A stretch of DNA of 21,251 bases from a virus. The translations under genes and the position numbers were made by a program. The notes below the pieces were generated by a model. The model saw only the letters and a list, made by a program, of their open reading frames with translations. It did not search any database and was not told where the DNA came from. Shown piece after piece: positions 3,832 through 21,224 of this stretch; position 1 is the stretch's first letter; every line of letters starts with the position of its first letter. The DNA lies in the IMG/VR virus record IMGVR_UViG_3300027847_000385, positions 1 to 21,251 of that record. One strand, written 5' to 3'.

Positions 3832-6800
3832 CTAGTCAAACGCATCTGGGGATCCCTGTGTATTTTCATCAAGGACTTCCTTATCTGTTTTTTTATTATA
3901 CTTATAAAATTGGACAGGCAGCACCTTGAGCTTGCCAATAGTCTTTGTGGGATTTTTAAACAGTTCCATAAACAGCTTTGCTGCTTCGGGATCTTTTTCT
4001 GCAACAGCTTTTCTGTGATGATATTTAACCATGTGGGAAACATTGTCAAATCCTAGATCCTTTGCAATACGCTTCCATTGTTCTGCTATTGGAGCTGATC
4101 TAGTATCGTTTTTCTTTAGCGACACATTATAAAGATTAAGAGTCATCATATCTGCCTCTTCAGGAGGTGTCCTTTTAAGAACTTCCGCACCAACCATATT
4201 CTTCATTGCCGCCCACAAGCTCATCGTCTGCTGCGGTTCGGTTTCTTTTGCGATCCTCTGGAGATGTCCAATCATTTCAGAATAAGTTACTGGATCTGAG
4301 GGGCTGGCAAGAGTCTTGGTGATTCTTTCTCCCAAACGTGTCAACGTAAAAATTTGTTTCTTCTCCAGCGAATCGCCCCCCAAAGACTGACGCCCAACCT
4401 CCATCCATTCAGAAACACTTTGCTTTTCTTTAGTGGTGCCATAGGACATAGAAGATGCTAAAAAAGTTCCAAGTGAATCTGCCATCTTCCAGTCCCTTGT
4501 CATCAGAGTCTGTTCGTCAAGATCCTGTTGGGAAAATGACAGAGTATTGCCATCTCTCCCTGCAACCGGGAAGCTCGCAACAATCGCCCCTTTGGAGACA
4601 ACATACACATCATATCTACCGTCCCCGGATTTAACAGGGATCATAGTTGTGTCCTCGCTCAACATTGCAAAGTTTTTAGCAAAGAAATTCTTCCAGTCCT
4701 TTGTTTGTTGGTCATTGAGGTCATCCCATTTAATATTTACAGGGACCGTGTCTTCATCAACAGAGAGTTCCTTACTAGCAATCATGTTTAAGATTATCTG
4801 ATTTATGGCAGATGCCCTTTCAACGACAGGAGATTTTATTACTTGGTCGTGCAAATCTGATGTTTGTCTATCAGCATCACTTATTAAAACAGAATGCTGT
4901 CCACTCATTGTAGGGACAATCTCGACTGCTGAAACTAACTTAGCATGAGTTGAATGAACCACTTGCGTCTGTAGCTCCTGTGAGTTAGATCCTGTTTTAA
5001 GTATATCTGCCATAACAAGGCGATGGATGGCATCAACTGCAGTCTTACTACTCCCTCCAGAGCTATGCCGCATCCCCGTTAAAAGCCCCGGCAGTTTATC
5101 ATTTCCAAAGACAGAGGCATAATACTCTAGCGGAGTTGCAACCCCTTCGTTTTGGAAACGCATAAGGATTTCCTCTAAATCGTGTTCCACCAAGTCAAAA
5201 AAGCTCGTTGTCTTAAACTCTTTTAATCCTACAGCGATAATCTTTTCCTTGAGTTCTTTTGACGTATAACCACTATCATTTGACGAAGTGTAAATATCAT
5301 ATTTTTTTTTCAGATCGTTTCCTTGAGACATTGCATAAGCCGCAGTATTTAACAGCTCCTCATTTTTGCTAAATGCTGCCCACACAGCTACTGGAGGAAA
5401 AACGCCAGGAGTAAAATTCCCTGTTTCCGGATCAACATATCCATGAATGATCCCGTCTGCTATAGGGACATCATCATCATTCTTATAATCATTTTCTATC
5501 TTTTCAATAAGAGCAGTTGTTTTTAAAATCAGGTCATCTCCTTGTTTCCAGAATGAATCAAATTCTGTTTTAACAGCTTCCAAATATGCTTTTGAGACAT
5601 AGACACCTGAACTCTGCCCTGAAAGGATTTCTGTCATTGCATTGACTGCAATGGCTTTTTCATAAGGGGAGGTGTCTTCAGTTATTAGCTCCTGCCTCTG
5701 AAGGACATTTTCTGCGTATAACCCCTGATCTTTTTGGAACGATTCTATCTCCTGTCTAATCTGAGTTGTTACTCCAGCATGCGTTTTCATCAACCCAGAG
5801 GGGCTCGCATTCCCATATTCTTTTGATGCAAAGTTTTGATAGTTTAATTTCTCCAGTTGTGAAGCCAGACTCGTCAGCGAACTCTTTGGATCCTTTAGTC
5901 TTTTTATAATTGTGTCATGTAAAACTGCCTGATAGTTTAACAAGGATTGGACTTGTTTGCTCCTTGTGTCCGTGATTAGCCCCGCTCTATGTTTTTTGTA
6001 GTCCTTATCTTCCTCTATTAGTTCTGCCAGTTCTTTACCTGTTATCTCTTCTCCTCTCAGTAATTTGGTTACTAGCAGTTCCAGATCCTGAGAAAAACGG
6101 TCTTTGATGTTTTTGGGAACCGTTTTGCTTTCTGACGCCAAACGATTCTCAAACCTTCTCGCCTCCAGCATCAAACTTTTATAGTCTGTTTCTGTCAAAG
6201 AACTGAATTTAGCATAGGGGGAGTCTACTCCCAACTGAGAAAGCATATTATGCTGATTTGCCCAATCCTGAAATTCTTTATAAGTCTTGTGTTTAAGCAT
6301 GTATTGAGGATCCGAATATGTTTTTTCGCTTATGCTTATCTTTGCAAGTCCTCTCACATCGTTAAGAGTTGCATTCTGATAAGTCTGAAAAACTCCGAAC
6401 AGATCACTAGACTCATGTTCAGCAGCAAAAGAGTATTTCTTTTGGAGCTCATCAAAGGTTTTTGGTAATTTCTTACGATCCCCTGGACTTAGGATAAGTG
6501 CCTTCAGATGGGCAACTTCTGCCTTTGCCGATTCTTTATTGAAGAGAAGTTCAATCCTAGACTCAGGAATGTTAAACCCATCCAACTGTTCCTTAAACAG
6601 TCTAAAGACAGCCGCTCTTGCAGTTTGTCGATTAGAGGGGCCAGCGTCGCCTGTCATTGGCACTTTCTGCAACTCTCTGAGAGCTACTCCAACTTCAGCT
6701 ACAGATTTTTGTTCCATCAACGCAACACGATCTGCAATTTCTCTCTGGTAACTGTTAGAGAGATAGTCTCCTGCCGCTTTCATATACCGAGATTTAATAG

Positions 6801-11861: not shown

Positions 11862-12854
11862 TTATTGTATGCAGTTGATTTGGATCATGAGCTTCTCATC
11901 CAAACGAGTTGCACCCATATCCATCTTGTAATAGATGTATGGGATAAACCGTTTGTTTGGAAGTTCGTCAATCCGAGCAACCACATCAGCCCAGATGCAC
12001 AAACCTAGTGCATTGGGATGGAACGCCAGCACCTTCTCAGCCGTGACTGAGCCAGAAGTGGGAGAAGCATCTGCCTCAGTTGGCAAAGACTCATAGCGGA
12101 TAAAACGGAATCCTGCAAAATAATCGACTTTGCCGTCAACTAATGCGCGGATACTGTTGTAATCCACTGATTGAACCTTGGTTTCCTGAAGCAACGACTC
12201 AATCTGCCTAGCAGAACAGACGATGATGAACAGGGGAACCCCATTCTGGTCGTACTGATCTACTTCTTGCTCAGAAAGCAGTCTACGCGCACGAAGCAAC
12301 TTGTCCACTGTCAAAGCTGAACCTGCCGCTACATCTGCGGTATAGCCAAAGTCTGCAGGGATCTTCTGACTGGATGCGTTAAACCCCGTTTCCGAGAGAG
12401 CACCGCCAACCATTCCAGTCCAAGTGTGAGCTGCAGCTGCCGTCATGTCGCTATCAGCAGACCCGTAATGGGTACCGTAAGCAGCATCAACAATGATTGA
12501 ATCCATCTTCCGATTCATTGACATTGCTGCTGCACGCGCATAAGGCTGGATCACATCGTAGTTCATCCTACGCTGGTCCCATTCCTCCACTGCCGTACCA
12601 AACTGGTAAGGCTGTGAACTAACCTTTCTGCGGGAGTGCTTGATAGGCATGATCGGAGAATCTGCAAAGCGAGAGGTGATTGCCTCTGCCTCAACAGTCC
12701 CGACTTTATCCATAAACTCTACTAAACCAGAACAGTCAGGTTTTACCTGAACTACTGGCCGCAGACGCGAGTTCGTCTGCTGGATCTCCATTGCTACATC
12801 CTGCGCATAACGCTGGACGTAGGAAGTCTCGATCCCACTAAAATTAACTGCCAT
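11862..12854 (-). CDS. Major capsid protein
   Basis: The 330-residue protein matches the pattern of the podovirus capsid family to which BPP-1 coat protein belongs. An N-terminal helix with VQRYAQDVAMEIQQTNSRLR (13-32) is followed by VEFMDKVGTVEAEAITSRFA (45-64), where 'D-x-x-G-x-x-x-A-x-x-x-x-x-R' is typical. SPIMPIKHSRRKV and VEEWDQRRMNYDVIQPYARA (the E-loop and spine-helix region) come next, then AMSMNRKMDSIIVDAAYGTH. The remainder has alternating beta strands and ends KLMIQINCIQ. It would assemble the icosahedral shell. GGAG six bases upstream serves the ATG. It is preceded by a 150-base leader with several stem-loops, the longest non-coding gap in the window, consistent with special control of this most abundant product. 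Confidence 0.85.
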   Translation of the reverse strand: MAVNFSGIETSYVQRYAQDVAMEIQQTNSRLRPVVQVKPDCSGLVEFMDKVGTVEAEAITSRFADSPIMPIKHSRRKVSSQPYQFGTAVEEWDQRRMNYDVIQPYARAAAMSMNRKMDSIIVDAAYGTHYGSADSDMTAAAAHTWTGMVGGALSETGFNASSQKIPADFGYTADVAAGSALTVDKLLRARRLLSEQEVDQYDQNGVPLFIIVCSARQIESLLQETKVQSVDYNSIRALVDGKVDYFAGFRFIRYESLPTEADASPTSGSVTAEKVLAFHPNALGLCIWADVVARIDELPNKRFIPYIYYKMDMGATRLDEKLMIQINCIQ

Positions 12855-12865
12855 GGGTTACTCCA

Positions 12866-12892
12866 TGAAGTGATTAAAAAAATCAGGCTTCA
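12866..12892 (-). other. Stem-loop next to the capsid ribosome binding site
   Basis: TGAAG pairs with CTTCA and TGATT with AATCA, giving a 10-base-pair stem with a two-base CC bulge and a loop of five T. It ends on the base before the TGGAG that contains the ribosome binding site, so its opening or closing could influence capsid translation. Confidence 0.55.
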
Positions 12893-12920
12893 GGAATTAC
12901 CCACAACTAGAGTGGATTCC
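12893..12920 (-). other. Stem-loop abutting the previous one
   Basis: GGAAT pairs with ATTCC and CCAC with GTGG, giving nine base pairs with a three-base bulge (GTA) and a seven-base loop. It touches the neighbouring hairpin without a gap, so the two could stack end to end. Confidence 0.5.
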
Positions 12921-12932
12921 TATTCAGGGGGA

Positions 12933-12959
12933 AATCCGGGTCTCTCGATTATCCGGATT
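12933..12959 (-). other. Inverted repeat AATCCGG / CCGGATT in the capsid leader
   Basis: Perfect 7-base arms at 12933-12939 and 12953-12959 are separated by 13 bases. The arm at 12951-12958 is itself the palindrome ATCCGGAT, so it could also be a protein-binding site in DNA. Hairpin or operator cannot be decided from sequence alone. Confidence 0.45.
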
Positions 12960-12977
12960 CAATGCTGATACTTACCT

Positions 12978-12996
12978 GCTCCCCACTATGGGGTGC
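12978..12996 (-). other. Stem-loop CCCCA / TGGGG after the scaffold gene
   Basis: A five-base-pair GC-rich stem with a three-base loop is extended by two further pairs beyond one mismatch. It lies 8 bases after the scaffold stop. No T-run follows, so it is not a standard terminator; it may protect the upstream mRNA end. Confidence 0.45.
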
Positions 12997-13004
12997 CTAC
13001 TCTC

Positions 13005-13823
13005 TTATTGATTGGGGTAGGCAATCTTAAAGAGTCGATCCATTCGTTTGGTCGCCTCTTTATGACTAGGGTTTTGATTATCCCTATACTGATCTAAAAA
13101 GTCCTTTTGATTATAAAGCTCGTTGATCTTCTCTTGTGCTGATGATGGCGTGAGATCTCCAACTCCTGCAGATTGCCCCATTACCAAATTGGCTTCGCCC
13201 ATCATCTTGCCCATCTTGTGAAATATCTTTACTACTTCCGGATGGTCAGAAAGACCAGAATCCTCTAACAATGCTACCGATTCTTTGGTTGCAAGCTGAG
13301 AGAATGCACGCCTCGCAAGATCCATGTTCTCGTCAAACGCATCTCCGGGCCATTCTCTTTGCAGAGACTCCATGCCCTGATCGTACACGATCTGACGCTC
13401 CTGCATCTGTTGTTCCTTGCCCTGAACAACAATATCATTAAGCTCTCCCAAGATGTTCTGTGCTTGATCCTGAGTGAATCCTTGTTTGTGTGACCATCCT
13501 TTAAAATAATCTAGTCCTTCATCTTCATCATTATTGAACTCATCAAAAGTGTAATCCTCTGGTGCTTCAGGACGACCAAGTGCTCGATGAATCTGATCCC
13601 AAGATTCTCCTTCTTGTGGAATCTTGAGAAAACTCTCTGGAGGGGCTCCCATCTTTCTGACGGCATGGACATAGCTGTTTGCGAGCTTATCCACAGAATC
13701 AAAATTCTTCAGAGATGGTTCATGTGCTAATTCCCCTGGAAGCGTTGTCGCATCAAAGGGAGTCGGCATGAATTGGTCTTCCGAGGATTCATCCCCGGAT
13801 TCAGTAACTTGTGCTTCCGTCAT
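13005..13823 (-). CDS. Capsid scaffolding protein
   Basis: This 272-residue acidic protein has a low-complexity N-terminus (residues 1-30). A conserved opening follows: EPSLKNFDSVDKLANSYVHA (35-54) corresponds to the 'L-K-x-F-x-x-V-x-x-L-A-x-S-Y' motif of phage scaffold proteins. LGRPEAPEDYTFDEF (82-96) is the equally typical 'L-G-x-P-x-x-P-x-x-Y'. Charged helices rich in Gln and Glu follow, then a basic C-terminal end (KEATKRMDRLFKIAYPNQ) of the kind that contacts the coat protein. It sits directly before the capsid gene, the usual place. Its first 23 bases overlap the Bbp19-like gene in another frame. The protein would guide procapsid assembly and then leave or be degraded; no protease gene is seen nearby. 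Confidence 0.85.
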   Translation of the reverse strand: MTEAQVTESGDESSEDQFMPTPFDATTLPGELAHEPSLKNFDSVDKLANSYVHAVRKMGAPPESFLKIPQEGESWDQIHRALGRPEAPEDYTFDEFNNDEDEGLDYFKGWSHKQGFTQDQAQNILGELNDIVVQGKEQQMQERQIVYDQGMESLQREWPGDAFDENMDLARRAFSQLATKESVALLEDSGLSDHPEVVKIFHKMGKMMGEANLVMGQSAGVGDLTPSSAQEKINELYNQKDFLDQYRDNQNPSHKEATKRMDRLFKIAYPNQ

Positions 13824-14073
13824 TAGATTCCATTTGTTCCAGCTTGGCGAGGACTTCCTCTGGAGATGTCCTTGCTCTCTTAAATAAGTCCAGGACTACG
13901 TTGCGCGCTCCTTCATTGAAGGCACTGACCCGCTCAGAATGTGGGTCAAACGTAGGACTAAACGCATTGTACCGAGAAGCAAGATCCGCAAGGATTTCCT
14001 TGCCTTCCGGTGTGTTAAAGAGGCTATGATAGACCTCCAACAAACGAGCCTGCTTACGACTCATAAGATTCAT
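13801..14073 (-). CDS. Bbp19-like small phage protein
   Basis: The 90-residue protein has YHSLFNTPEGKEILADLASR (15-34), then YNAFSPTFDPHSERVSAFNE (35-54) and GARNVVLDLF. This matches the pattern of the Bbp19-like family ('F-x-T-P-E-G-x-x-x-L...F-x-x-S-F-x-x-x-x...F-x-x-G-x-R-x-V-x-L-x-L'), usually found between portal and scaffold genes in phages such as BPP-1. Its biochemical role is not known to me. The start overlaps the portal stop as ATGA; a second in-frame ATG three codons later (14064) is an alternative. Its end overlaps the scaffold gene by 23 bases. The tight overlaps with both neighbours suggest coupled expression with head assembly proteins. Confidence 0.8.
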   Translation of the reverse strand: MNLMSRKQARLLEVYHSLFNTPEGKEILADLASRYNAFSPTFDPHSERVSAFNEGARNVVLDLFKRARTSPEEVLAKLEQMESNDGSTSY

Positions 14074-17977: not shown

Positions 17978-20770
17978 TTATCTACGTCTGCGCCTTTGTC
18001 CTAATCTCGGAGATAGAATACTCTCATCATCTCCTGTGTTAAAACTCTTAAACCAGTTAATCCATGACTGATATGGAGTCACTCCACCTCGCTGTTTCTT
18101 TTCTTCTGAAAACTGTGCTGGGGTCGCAGAACCTGCACGATACTTTGGTGTAAATGGTTTTACTGTCGCAGAAATCTGTCCATACTTCCTTTGAGCAGCA
18201 GTTACAGCTTTAGGTATTCCACCACCAAATACCTTCTGTGTTGCTCTTGGCCCAAGTGCCTGTTTACCTGCTGTCATTACTATATCCGCAGGTTTAATGA
18301 CTGGGTTCTTAGATGCTGCTTCTGTTATTGCCGCACCAAGTGTGAGTCCCACGCCAGCGATCCCTAATCCCTTTGACCCTCCCACAAACCATTTGCGGAC
18401 TGAAGGATCTATCTTCATCTTATCTACATTTATAAGATCTGCAACCTTACGCATACGCTCTGTTTTTCCCTTTGCCTCAACAGACCCGCCTTGTGAATAC
18501 TTCCGTTCAGATGGACGCTCAACAGAACGATACTGTTCTTCTGACATTCCAGCAAACTGCTCTGTTAAATTTGTGCTCTTTCCGGGGGGTTTCTTAGTCA
18601 GTCTGCGATTTCTCTGCTGGCTGGGATCTGCTCCCTCTGCTGGATTTGGATCTCTCTTAAGACCAACATTCTGCTTCTGGACTGTCAAAGCATAATCTGG
18701 AATTGATGTCTTTCCTGTCTGCTGGGCATAGCCAGCAACTGCCTGAGATACTGATCCCGGCAACTGAGCTTTCACAGGAGCATTCCTCATCTTCTCCCAA
18801 TCCCGTGTGATGTTTGTCTCCATCTTGTCAGTCTCTGGAGAGTAACTCACTTCTTTCTTGAGTTGAATCTTGTTTGATTCTGCTCCTGCTTCTGCCGTCT
18901 GATCTGATACATCATAAGGAAGATTCTCTATGTCAATGCCTTCTGTTAAAAGTCCTTGTCCTGAAATGTATCCAACGAGATTCTTTTTTTGTTGTCTTAA
19001 TGTCTTAACTGTTTCTCTCAACTCACCAGAAGTTTTCTTGCTTCCCTTTTTACGGTTGGGAGTCCCATGGACATACGCTTTAATCAGTGCCCTTGCATTC
19101 TTCTCCCTTTTTCGGACATTCCCCATTCCTGTCTCTATCCTCTCCTCAACTCCAAGCCTCAACTTTTGCTTGCTTGCCTCCATCTTGGGATCTAGTTGCT
19201 CTGGAGCATCATAAGAGACTCCTTGGATCTCCTCCTGTACAACTCCACGGATCTGTTGAACCTTAGCATCTGCATCGTATGGAACGTCAGAAGATAAATC
19301 TTCTCCATCATCCAAAGACTCCAAAATGTTTATATCGACTCCAGAAGGATTGACTGTTGACACTTGGTCAAGACGAAGATTGCCCAACTCCTCTGCATGT
19401 TTAAGTCCAGATTGAGGAAGTCCTTCAGTGATTGCACGCTCATAATCCTGTGCAGCAACATTCTCTAATGCAAGTTTTCTGACTGAAGAAGGAAGACTCT
19501 TATTCATCATCTTCTTTGACAACTGTATTGCCCGTGGATCGTTGCTTTCTGCAAATCTAGCAATTAAACTCCCCGGTCGTTTAACATTGACTTGTCCAGG
19601 ATTAACGATCTGCTTTGCTAGTGAAGACTTGCCTCCTCCTCCTCGTCCCAAGAGGACTTCCTCACGACCCTTTGTCCCTCCTTGTGTGTGTCTTGTCTCT
19701 TCCTTAAACTGTTCTCCTGACTGAGTTAATACATCATACTCAAATGGTCTTCCCTTTGTGTCTGGAACCTGCACAACAGAACGTGCGCGCCCAGACTCAA
19801 TCTCTCCACCCGGACCTCCTAAAGAACTAATCTTCTGTCTGAGAGGAGTCCCTGTTTCTCCATACTCAGGATCTACATGAGATTCTGTCTGTATTCCTTG
19901 TCTTGCATTTCTCTGGAATTGTGCATACTCTCCTTCTGACATCTGTGTAGTATCATACTCCGAGACATTCTCAAAACCCGGACCAAAATCACTTCCCAAA
20001 CTCTCAAAATTAACACCCTTCCGATAACCCTTAAACATCTTTGATGTTCTGTCATCAGGATCTGGAACTGATCTTGGACTGTCATGATCCTCATGGATCT
20101 CTTTTAACAAATCCCGTGATACTTGGCTAATGACTTCTGGAGAAACTCCATACTTTCCTGCAAGTTTCTGGTGTCCTTTTGGATTCTGTGCAAGTTTCAA
20201 TATCTGTGATCTTGCATTTGCTTGGGCACTCTTTCTTGCATCTCCATATCCTGCTGCATCCTTTGGAGGAAGCTGGGAGGTTGCATCTCTGTAGATCTTG
20301 GAGAATTGTCGTTCATACAATCTCTGAATCTCGTTTGCCTTATTCCCCGGCTGCAACTGCTTGCGAGCCTTTCCCTTCATGTCAGGATTGGAAAGTGTGT
20401 TCTGTAAACTGGAATACTCTTGGTCAAGCTGACTTCCCTTGCCCTCCAGAACATTCTCTGCACGGGCTCCTACAGACTCAGATGGACGAATCTCACGATA
20501 AGTAGTAGTCTCCTTTCCTGTCTCTAAATCATATCTCGCTCGGGGCTCTCTCCGTGCTGCTGCCTGTTCTCCTGCAGTTGCACCTTCGTTGCGTATATCC
20601 CTCCTCCGACTTCCTAAGACATTCTCCAATGGCCCACTAGACTGTGTAGTCCGCTTACCTGTCAAGATATGCTTGGTTGCTGGAACCTTGATCTTGGGGT
20701 TGGCTTGGACCCATTTTCCATTAACCAACATCTCTATTGTCCCTGCGTTTGCTTTTCTTAACTGTGCCAT
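17978..20770 (-). CDS. Large basic, probably disordered protein between terminase subunits, function unknown
   Basis: The start at 20770 (MAQLRKANAGTIEMLVNGKW) is chosen because GGAGG stands nine bases upstream; the longer frame from 20821 would overlap the small terminase gene by 50 bases. The 930 residues are rich in Gly, Lys, Arg, Gln, Ser and Glu with few aromatic residues, suggesting long disordered or helical stretches. A P-loop-like GRGGGGKS lies at 375-382 (19625-19648) behind the short strand EEVLL, but no matching Walker B is evident. Residues 797-817 form a hydrophobic Gly/Ala segment (GLGIAGVGLTLGAA). The protein ends in five arginines (LGQRRRRR). An ejected internal protein, a packaging accessory or a head component are all possible. 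I do not recognise the family. Confidence 0.8.
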   Translation of the reverse strand: MAQLRKANAGTIEMLVNGKWVQANPKIKVPATKHILTGKRTTQSSGPLENVLGSRRRDIRNEGATAGEQAAARREPRARYDLETGKETTTYREIRPSESVGARAENVLEGKGSQLDQEYSSLQNTLSNPDMKGKARKQLQPGNKANEIQRLYERQFSKIYRDATSQLPPKDAAGYGDARKSAQANARSQILKLAQNPKGHQKLAGKYGVSPEVISQVSRDLLKEIHEDHDSPRSVPDPDDRTSKMFKGYRKGVNFESLGSDFGPGFENVSEYDTTQMSEGEYAQFQRNARQGIQTESHVDPEYGETGTPLRQKISSLGGPGGEIESGRARSVVQVPDTKGRPFEYDVLTQSGEQFKEETRHTQGGTKGREEVLLGRGGGGKSSLAKQIVNPGQVNVKRPGSLIARFAESNDPRAIQLSKKMMNKSLPSSVRKLALENVAAQDYERAITEGLPQSGLKHAEELGNLRLDQVSTVNPSGVDINILESLDDGEDLSSDVPYDADAKVQQIRGVVQEEIQGVSYDAPEQLDPKMEASKQKLRLGVEERIETGMGNVRKREKNARALIKAYVHGTPNRKKGSKKTSGELRETVKTLRQQKKNLVGYISGQGLLTEGIDIENLPYDVSDQTAEAGAESNKIQLKKEVSYSPETDKMETNITRDWEKMRNAPVKAQLPGSVSQAVAGYAQQTGKTSIPDYALTVQKQNVGLKRDPNPAEGADPSQQRNRRLTKKPPGKSTNLTEQFAGMSEEQYRSVERPSERKYSQGGSVEAKGKTERMRKVADLINVDKMKIDPSVRKWFVGGSKGLGIAGVGLTLGAAITEAASKNPVIKPADIVMTAGKQALGPRATQKVFGGGIPKAVTAAQRKYGQISATVKPFTPKYRAGSATPAQFSEEKKQRGGVTPYQSWINWFKSFNTGDDESILSPRLGQRRRRR

Positions 20771-20771
20771 A

Positions 20772-21224
20772 CTATGCCGCCTCCAAACTCGGCCCCGATC
20801 CGTTACGACGCATCCTGACACGCGCTAACATTAGCTTCGCACCATCTGCTCCGACCAAAGAAATTAACTCTGCCTCTAGTTGTTCTGAACTCTTATGTAT
20901 TCCATGATCTCCCTCCAATATCCTGCTGCGCTCCAATAACTCCTTTGCAGCATTTAACTGAACAACCTCACTCTCGCTGCGGTCCATTAACCACTCCATC
21001 TTTGCTAATGCCTTTGGACCGACTCCCTTCAGACGCTCTCGCATCAATGAAGAAATCTCGTCTCGTAACTCATACTTTAATCCGTTTGCTGCAACCCTCA
21101 GCTTCTTCTCGCATCCCTTAAAATATCCTGCCTCCCGTGCACTCTCTAACGCATCTCCACTCTCTATAAACTCCTCCACAAACTTGCGGCGACGATGACT
21201 CCTTAAATGTGATAGCTGCTCCAT
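20772..21224 (-). CDS. terS: Terminase small subunit
   Basis: The 150-residue protein has RKFVEEFIESGDALESAREA (13-32) followed by GY, the helix-turn-helix pattern with which small terminases start ('F-V-x-x-x-x-x-x-x-N-A-x-x-A-A-x-x-A-G-Y'). A central helical region follows (ISSLMRERLKGVGPKALAKM, 57-76, and VVQLNAAKELLERS), typical of the oligomerisation core, and a basic C-terminus (LARVRMRRNGSG). It would recognise the packaging site and recruit large terminase. AGGAG lies one base before the ATG, too close to be ideal, although AGG seven bases upstream is better placed. The frame stays open for nine codons up to the window edge, so a start further upstream cannot be excluded. It ends one base before the next ATG. 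Confidence 0.8.
   Translation of the reverse strand: MEQLSHLRSHRRRKFVEEFIESGDALESAREAGYFKGCEKKLRVAANGLKYELRDEISSLMRERLKGVGPKALAKMEWLMDRSESEVVQLNAAKELLERSRILEGDHGIHKSSEQLEAELISLVGADGAKLMLARVRMRRNGSGPSLEAA
20780..20784 (-). promoter_or_regulatory. Ribosome binding site that fixes the start of the 930-residue gene
   Basis: GGAGG lies nine bases before the ATG at 20768-20770, within the last codons of the small terminase gene. The two genes are therefore probably translated in a coupled way. Confidence 0.6.

What the first reader, a model, noticed from the sequence alone, without database searches (positions are those of the whole stretch)
12855..13004. Chain of four stem-loops in the capsid gene leader
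In an operon where most gaps are under 30 bases, the capsid gene is preceded by 150 non-coding bases that can form four consecutive hairpins (12866-12892, 12893-12920, 12933-12959, 12978-12996). The two nearest the gene abut without a spare base, and the last ends directly before the ribosome binding site. This looks like a regulatory or stabilising RNA leader: capsid autoregulation, RNase processing, or a site for a phage polymerase. The hairpins are seen in the sequence; the function is inference.
Basis: partly seen in the sequence, partly recalled or inferred. Interest (0 to 1): 0.6.

Follow-up and report, generated by a model that had tools for sequence, protein, structure and literature searches.

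The report
Structured RNA switch before capsid gene
The stretch in front of this marine phage's capsid gene is a conserved, folded RNA carrying two copies of a small recurring RNA module that relatives also place at the start of their scaffold gene, so it is probably a translational control element that balances the proteins of the phage head.

Summary
The four stem-loops exist on the transcribed (minus) strand, but the gene-proximal one is the inner part of a longer hairpin that pairs the Shine-Dalgarno sequence and the AUG. That hairpin and stem-loop 12893-12920 share a strand, so they are mutually exclusive. The leader belongs to a conserved structured-RNA family: in 33 related leaders an independent consensus fold gives the same architecture with strong covariation. 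A covariance model built without the window finds it at the right place and strand (weak score). The core is a small module, helix / (RNAR facing one Y) / helix, where the first R and the Y are A·C or G·U and almost never A-U or G-C: 45 and 20 observed against about 1 each in shuffles. The window leader has two such modules in opposite orientations; 0 of 5000 shuffles had both. At least six relative lineages, including cultivated pelagiphages HTVC010P and HTVC024P, also carry the module 8-25 nt after the scaffold start; the window does not. Nothing in Rfam 15 matches. Best explanation: a translational control element for head-protein synthesis, read by a protein (scaffold, capsid or host) binding the module. 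The structure is well supported; the regulator and the switching are inferred.

The parts
12855..13004 (-). capsid-gene leader (transcribed 13004 to 12855), whole element
   Evidence: 150-nt gap between scaffold stop and capsid start; matches covariance model R1 at 12876-13001, 14.7 bits, E=0.0018 for 501 nt, filters off
12995..13004 (-). P1 5' strand (GAGAGUAGGC), directly after the scaffold stop codon; pairs with 12888-12878 in the constrained ON fold
   Evidence: constrained fold; corresponds to P1 UCAC/GUGA of relatives
12978..12996 (-). H1 stem-loop (CCCCA-UAG-UGGGG core)
   Evidence: corresponds to CCUCCAUAGUGGAGG of relatives, with both-side changes
12932..12960 (-). module 1, orientation 1: GAAUCCGG-AUAA-UC(GAGA)GA-C-CCGGAUUU
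   Evidence: descriptor hit; same-register match in R1
12891..12922 (-). module 2, orientation 2: UAGGAA-U-CCAC(UCUAGUU)GUGG-GUAA-UUCCUG
   Evidence: descriptor hit; core strands GGAAUCCAC and GUGGGYAAUUCC conserved in L096 and L097
12876..12888 (-). P1 3' strand GCCU-G-AUUUUUUU
   Evidence: constrained fold
12850..12907 (-). RBS-sequestering hairpin (OFF state): 12907-12899 with 12858-12850, 12897-12893 with 12864-12860, 12892-12888 with 12870-12866, 12885-12881 with 12875-12871
   Evidence: region 12845-12910 z=-5.5
12861..12864 (-). Shine-Dalgarno GGAG of the capsid gene
   Evidence: sequence; SD-to-AUG accessibility 0.14, lowest of 15 genes checked in the window
11862..12854 (-). major capsid protein gene
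   Evidence: Pfam PF19821 Phage_capsid_2 E=3.5e-65; PHROG 3437 major head protein
13005..13823 (-). scaffold / capsid-assembly gene; its stop codon abuts the RNA element
   Evidence: PHROG 3742/458; position matches annotated capsid assembly proteins of pelagiphages

Best explanation
The leader is a conserved structured RNA that controls translation of the capsid gene. As it leaves the polymerase it can fold into a closed domain (P1 around H1, a P4 stem carrying module 1, and module 2). When module 2 is formed, its 3' strand (12904-12893) is not free to pair with the SD and start codon, and the capsid can be translated. When module 2 is not held, the same strand pairs with the SD and AUG and shuts initiation down; this is the lower-energy state in isolation (-53.9 against -46.1 kcal/mol). 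The recurring module (helix, RNAR facing one Y with an A·C or G·U wobble, helix) is most likely the binding site of a protein, probably the scaffold or capsid protein, less likely a host protein, whose binding sets the choice. In many relatives the same module lies 8-25 nt inside the scaffold gene, where a bound protein would block scaffold initiation, so one protein could keep scaffold and capsid synthesis in proportion. Shown: the conserved structure, the module, its A·C/G·U rule, its placement, and low predicted RBS accessibility. Inferred: protein binding, the identity of the protein, and switching in the cell.
For: RNAalifold on 33 relatives gives the architecture with 9 pairs changed on both sides. 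For the named structure 94.8% of cells pair, 13 pairs change on both sides, covariation 0.243 against 0.128 shuffled (0/500) and at most 0.079 when slid. R1 finds further leaders at E 7.5e-7 to 2e-12, one copy per contig, and the window in the same register. First-R/Y table over 68 leader representatives: A/C 45 against 1.3, G/U 20 against 0.9, all else near background. Both modules in the window leader against 0/5000 shuffles. Sense-strand density 4.8 per kb in leaders against 0.34 elsewhere. Capsid RBS least accessible of 15 window genes; 18/30 leaders at or below the 10th percentile of shuffles. RBS pairing with module 2 exceeds module-shuffled controls in the window type and most close relatives. 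Modules at scaffold +8 to +25 in at least six lineages. In HTVC010P and HTVC024P whole genomes the only AYAA/C hits on the sense strand are the scaffold start and the pre-capsid site, apart from one weak hit in HTVC010P.
Against: No experiment; no regulator identified. The window score to R1 is low (14.7 bits), and a reverse-strand false positive reached 16.7 bits elsewhere, so membership rests on register plus the module, not on the score. The RBS-sequestering alternative is not universal: absent in Baldr, L018, L053 and L088, and weak in HTVC010P types; its own covariation is no better than shuffled in A3. The window and L097 lack a recognisable module at the scaffold start. The coupled synonymous A·C to G·U change in the scaffold gene reflects only one or two independent switches. 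The descriptor was refined while looking at these sequences.
Confidence: 0.58

Rival explanations
1. No trans factor: a folding and ribosome-coupled device. P1 begins right at the scaffold stop codon, so ribosomes finishing scaffold disturb P1 and the choice between module 2 and the RBS hairpin, coupling capsid translation to scaffold translation.
For: P1 5' strand starts immediately after the scaffold stop in the window and a few nt after it in relatives; the ON domain is transcribed before the RBS; OFF state favoured at equilibrium.
Against: Does not explain why the module keeps an A·C/G·U wobble and RNAR strand, nor why it recurs inside the scaffold start.
Confidence: 0.2
2. An mRNA processing or stability element that separates or protects the capsid message.
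For: Capsid is usually the most abundant late protein, and structured 5' ends can stabilise mRNA (general knowledge).
Against: Stems are short and interrupted; conservation extends into SD and AUG pairing; the same module lies inside scaffold coding sequence.
Confidence: 0.1
3. A small-molecule riboswitch with two aptamer-like modules.
For: Junction architecture and a strand shared with an RBS hairpin resemble riboswitch expression platforms.
Against: The module is a tiny helix-loop in two orientations and also sits alone inside coding sequence; controlled genes are structural; no Rfam riboswitch matches.
Confidence: 0.06
4. A transcription element: terminator, promoter or put-like antiterminator.
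For: A U-tract (12882-12876) follows the GCCU strand of P1.
Against: No terminator-like or promoter-like excess; part of the U-tract pairs in P1 and it is not conserved; position is mid-operon.
Confidence: 0.04
5. Chance folding with no function.
For: Plain MFE is only moderately unusual.
Against: Covariation, module statistics and conserved position.
Confidence: 0.02

Closest known systems
Phage P22 scaffolding protein (gp8) post-transcriptional autoregulation (from own knowledge; no primary paper found in the held library)
   Same: head-assembly operon; synthesis of a head protein tuned to assembly after transcription
   Different: there the scaffold gene regulates itself; here the visible RNA element leads the capsid gene and, in relatives, also the scaffold start; the regulator here is unknown
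Coat-protein translational operators of RNA phages MS2/R17 and Qbeta (own knowledge)
   Same: short hairpin with an unpaired defect placed at a translation start
   Different: MS2 uses a single-nucleotide bulge and a specific tetraloop; here an RNAR/Y asymmetric loop in dsDNA tailed phages, usually twice per leader and in both orientations
Ribosomal-protein autoregulatory mRNA leaders
   Same: structured leader controlling translation of an operon for a macromolecular assembly; RBS occlusion
   Different: no Rfam match to any of them
T7 gene 10 leader (own knowledge)
   Same: non-coding leader before the capsid gene in a head operon of T7-like order
   Different: in T7 it carries a phage promoter and a translation enhancer; no such promoter signal was found here

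Membership tests
Capsid-leader RNA family defined here (model R1, built from relatives of about 45-50% capsid identity) | same place: directly before the major capsid gene, after the scaffold stop | tested here: met
Capsid-leader RNA family defined here (model R1, built from relatives of about 45-50% capsid identity) | covariance-model match on the transcribed strand, correct register | tested here: met
   12876-13001 minus, 14.7 bits, E=0.0018/501 nt; next best in that stretch 4.2 bits; the score alone is weak
Capsid-leader RNA family defined here (model R1, built from relatives of about 45-50% capsid identity) | module 1 (orientation 1) and module 2 (orientation 2) obeying the A·C/G·U rule | tested here: met
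   AUAA/C and GUAA/U
Capsid-leader RNA family defined here (model R1, built from relatives of about 45-50% capsid identity) | strand shared between module 2 and an RBS-sequestering helix | tested here: met
   window type, L096 and L097 0/60 module shuffles; not met in distant relatives such as Baldr
Any Rfam 15 family | match at gathering score | tested here: not met
   no gathering match in the window or six related loci; no meaningful match at loose E-values
Phage-protein autoregulatory operator (P22 scaffold-like or MS2 coat-like) | specific binding of a phage protein to the RNA | not testable with these tools
   needs binding assays
Phage-protein autoregulatory operator (P22 scaffold-like or MS2 coat-like) | site overlaps or occludes a translation start | tested here: met
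   window RBS hairpin; scaffold +8 to +25 in relatives
Intrinsic terminator | GC-rich hairpin followed directly by a U-run | tested here: not met
   one weak 6-bp site overlapping the capsid start, no excess over shuffles
RNase III processing site | about 20 bp of near-continuous helix | tested here: not met
   module stems are 4-8 bp interrupted by a loop; the 24-bp RBS hairpin is interrupted and not universal

The most novel reading that the evidence does not exclude
A head-assembly RNA regulon: one protein reads the same small RNA module (wobble A·C or G·U plus a three-nucleotide bulge) in the capsid leader and, in many lineages, inside the scaffold start, in abundant ocean podoviruses including HTVC010P. 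It would be an undescribed RNA-recognition module that times and balances capsid and scaffold synthesis.
Probability: 0.4. Interest if true: 0.85.

Novelty: new variant of a known kind. Interest (0 to 1): 0.72.

Why it matters
How tailed phages keep scaffold and capsid in proportion is known in outline for only a few model phages. This gives a concrete, conserved RNA element with a sharp sequence rule, present in cultivated phages of SAR11 (HTVC010P group), so the question becomes directly testable. It also adds an RNA family not in Rfam 15 and a recurring internal-loop module whose partner is unknown.

Tried and rejected
Plus-strand fold: more stable but not transcribed. Rfam: nothing useful. 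Exact DNA pattern TAGTTGTGGGNAATTCC in viral contigs: only window-type relatives plus unrelated hits. The broader pattern gave one further capsid locus, which was L097's contig again. Host-genome scan: only a distant capsid in Tistrella. A universal RBS switch was rejected: the module is family-wide, the RBS lock is not. A scaffold-start module in the window itself was sought; only a plain hairpin CCGGGGA-UGAA-UCCUCGG at about +27 was seen. Counting the scaffold synonymous covariation as 13 against 13 independent events was rejected after a tree.

Full report
WHAT IS THERE. The window is a 21,251-base virus record with a T7-like late operon on the minus strand: small terminase (weak match), large terminase, portal, scaffold, capsid, tail tubes. 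The capsid (Pfam PF19821) is closest among named phages to Pelagibacter phage HTVC010P and relatives, at about 36% identity. Between the scaffold stop and the capsid start lie 150 nt. That hairpin is unusually stable (z = -5.5, 0/1000 shuffles), and the capsid RBS is the least accessible of the 15 genes checked in the window. The stem-loop 12893-12920 uses the same strand and cannot coexist with it. In isolation the RBS-closed form wins by about 8 kcal/mol.

RELATIVES. Two near-identical contigs (L002, L003), L004/L096 (66% capsid identity) and L097 form the window's own clade; about 60 more contigs have roughly 45-52% capsid identity to L096. Most have capsid leaders of about 130-180 nt. An alignment of 33 of them (A3) folds by RNAalifold into P1 (UCAC/GUGA) enclosing H1 (CCUCC..GGAGG), then P3 (ACC/GGU) enclosing two hairpins, with 9 of 25 pairs changed on both sides. 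Counting the structure that I had drawn by hand gave 94.8% paired cells, 13 pairs with both-side changes and covariation 0.243, against 0.128 in shuffles and at most 0.079 when slid. A covariance model from these (R1) finds other leaders at E 7.5e-7 to 2e-12, once per contig and, in the loci checked, before the capsid. With filters off it finds the window leader at 12876-13001, correct strand and register, as the best hit by 10 bits in that stretch. I count this as support, not proof, because a reverse-strand false positive elsewhere scored 16.7 bits.

THE MODULE. Both internal hairpins of the domain are the same thing: helix, then a four-nucleotide strand RNAR facing a single Y, then helix, with a G-C pair on the RNAR side. 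One hairpin has the four-base strand on its 5' side, the other on its 3' side. In 68 leader representatives clustered to reduce redundancy, with the first base and the opposite base left free, the pair was A/C 45 times and G/U 20 times (1.3 and 0.9 expected from dinucleotide shuffles). Watson-Crick combinations were near background: A/U 2, G/C 3. A·C and G·U wobbles can be isosteric, so this is covariation at a non-canonical pair, which points to RNA. The window leader has one of each orientation, AUAA/C and GUAA/U; single modules occur in 0.5-0.6% of shuffles and both in 0 of 5000. Modules are 14 times denser in capsid leaders than elsewhere on the sense strand of the same loci. Caveats: the descriptor was refined on these data, and the leader representatives are still related.

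A SECOND PLACE. Scanning whole loci showed a second cluster near the start of the scaffold gene. In at least six lineages with unrelated sequences a module begins 8-25 nt after the scaffold start codon. The HTVC010P group carries ACAGAUAACACAGGAAACUGUGCCUGU with compensatory changes in the inner stem. Others carry GUAG/U versions or the opposite orientation. In the 45-52% group it lies in codons for APE..SGQ, and the silent third bases of Ala and Gly are A·C in 13 and G·U in 13 of 29 distinct sequences, with two exceptions and one unrelated pattern hit; on a tree this is only one or two independent switches. In the complete HTVC010P and HTVC024P genomes the AYAA/C hits on the sense strand are the scaffold start and the site before the capsid, plus one weak hit in HTVC010P. 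The window and L097 show no such scaffold-start module.

MECHANISM. Shown: a conserved RNA with a repeated module; low predicted RBS accessibility in the capsid leader (18 of 30 leaders at or below the 10th percentile of shuffles); pairing of the RBS with module 2 in the window type and most close relatives beyond module-shuffled controls. Not universal: Baldr, L018, L053 and L088 lack that pairing, and HTVC010P types show it weakly. Inferred: a protein binds the module. The likeliest candidates are scaffold or capsid, by analogy with P22 scaffold autoregulation and RNA-phage coat operators (own knowledge). In the window, binding would hold module 2 and keep the RBS open; at a scaffold start, binding would block initiation. 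A ribosome-coupled version without a trans factor is the main rival, since P1 begins at the scaffold stop codon.

NOVELTY AND VERDICT. Rfam 15 has no match and literature searches found no description, within the limits of that library. As a kind it is a cis-acting translational leader; as a family and as a module it appears new.

Noticed in passing
scaffold gene starts of L014, L023, L029, L046, L075, L100, L117 and others: The same RNA module lies 8-25 nt after the scaffold start codon in at least six lineages, in both orientations.
   Followed up: yes
L110, L112, L117, L126, L129, L100, about 380-445 nt before the capsid ATG: A third module-like site inside scaffold coding sequence (codons for GNHPEV), with an outer stem of up to 8 bp that appears to covary; may instead reflect the protein motif.
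   Followed up: no
about 805-880 nt before the capsid ATG in the same group: Module-like hit in codons for VDKLAKSY; broken in the window; probably a conserved protein motif counted many times.
   Followed up: partly
capsid leaders of most lineages: The end of module 2 lies about 33-46 nt before the capsid AUG in most lineages, or 60-80 nt where an extra hairpin or a longer spacer is present.
   Followed up: partly
window 13977-14005 (-): Module-like hairpin (GAAA/U, 7-bp outer stem) inside the small gene before scaffold; may be chance.
   Followed up: no
L172 (Skadi-11, OP131298.1): The annotated portal ORF (4263-6695) runs on through the scaffold region, suggesting a fused portal-scaffold gene.
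   Followed up: no
L170 (MW202898.1, 25459-26031): An ORF at the tail-tube position is annotated 'major capsid protein', although the capsid lies upstream; probably a mislabel.
   Followed up: no
window 17978-20821 (-): A 947-aa protein between the two terminase genes, unusual for this operon order; not searched.
   Followed up: no
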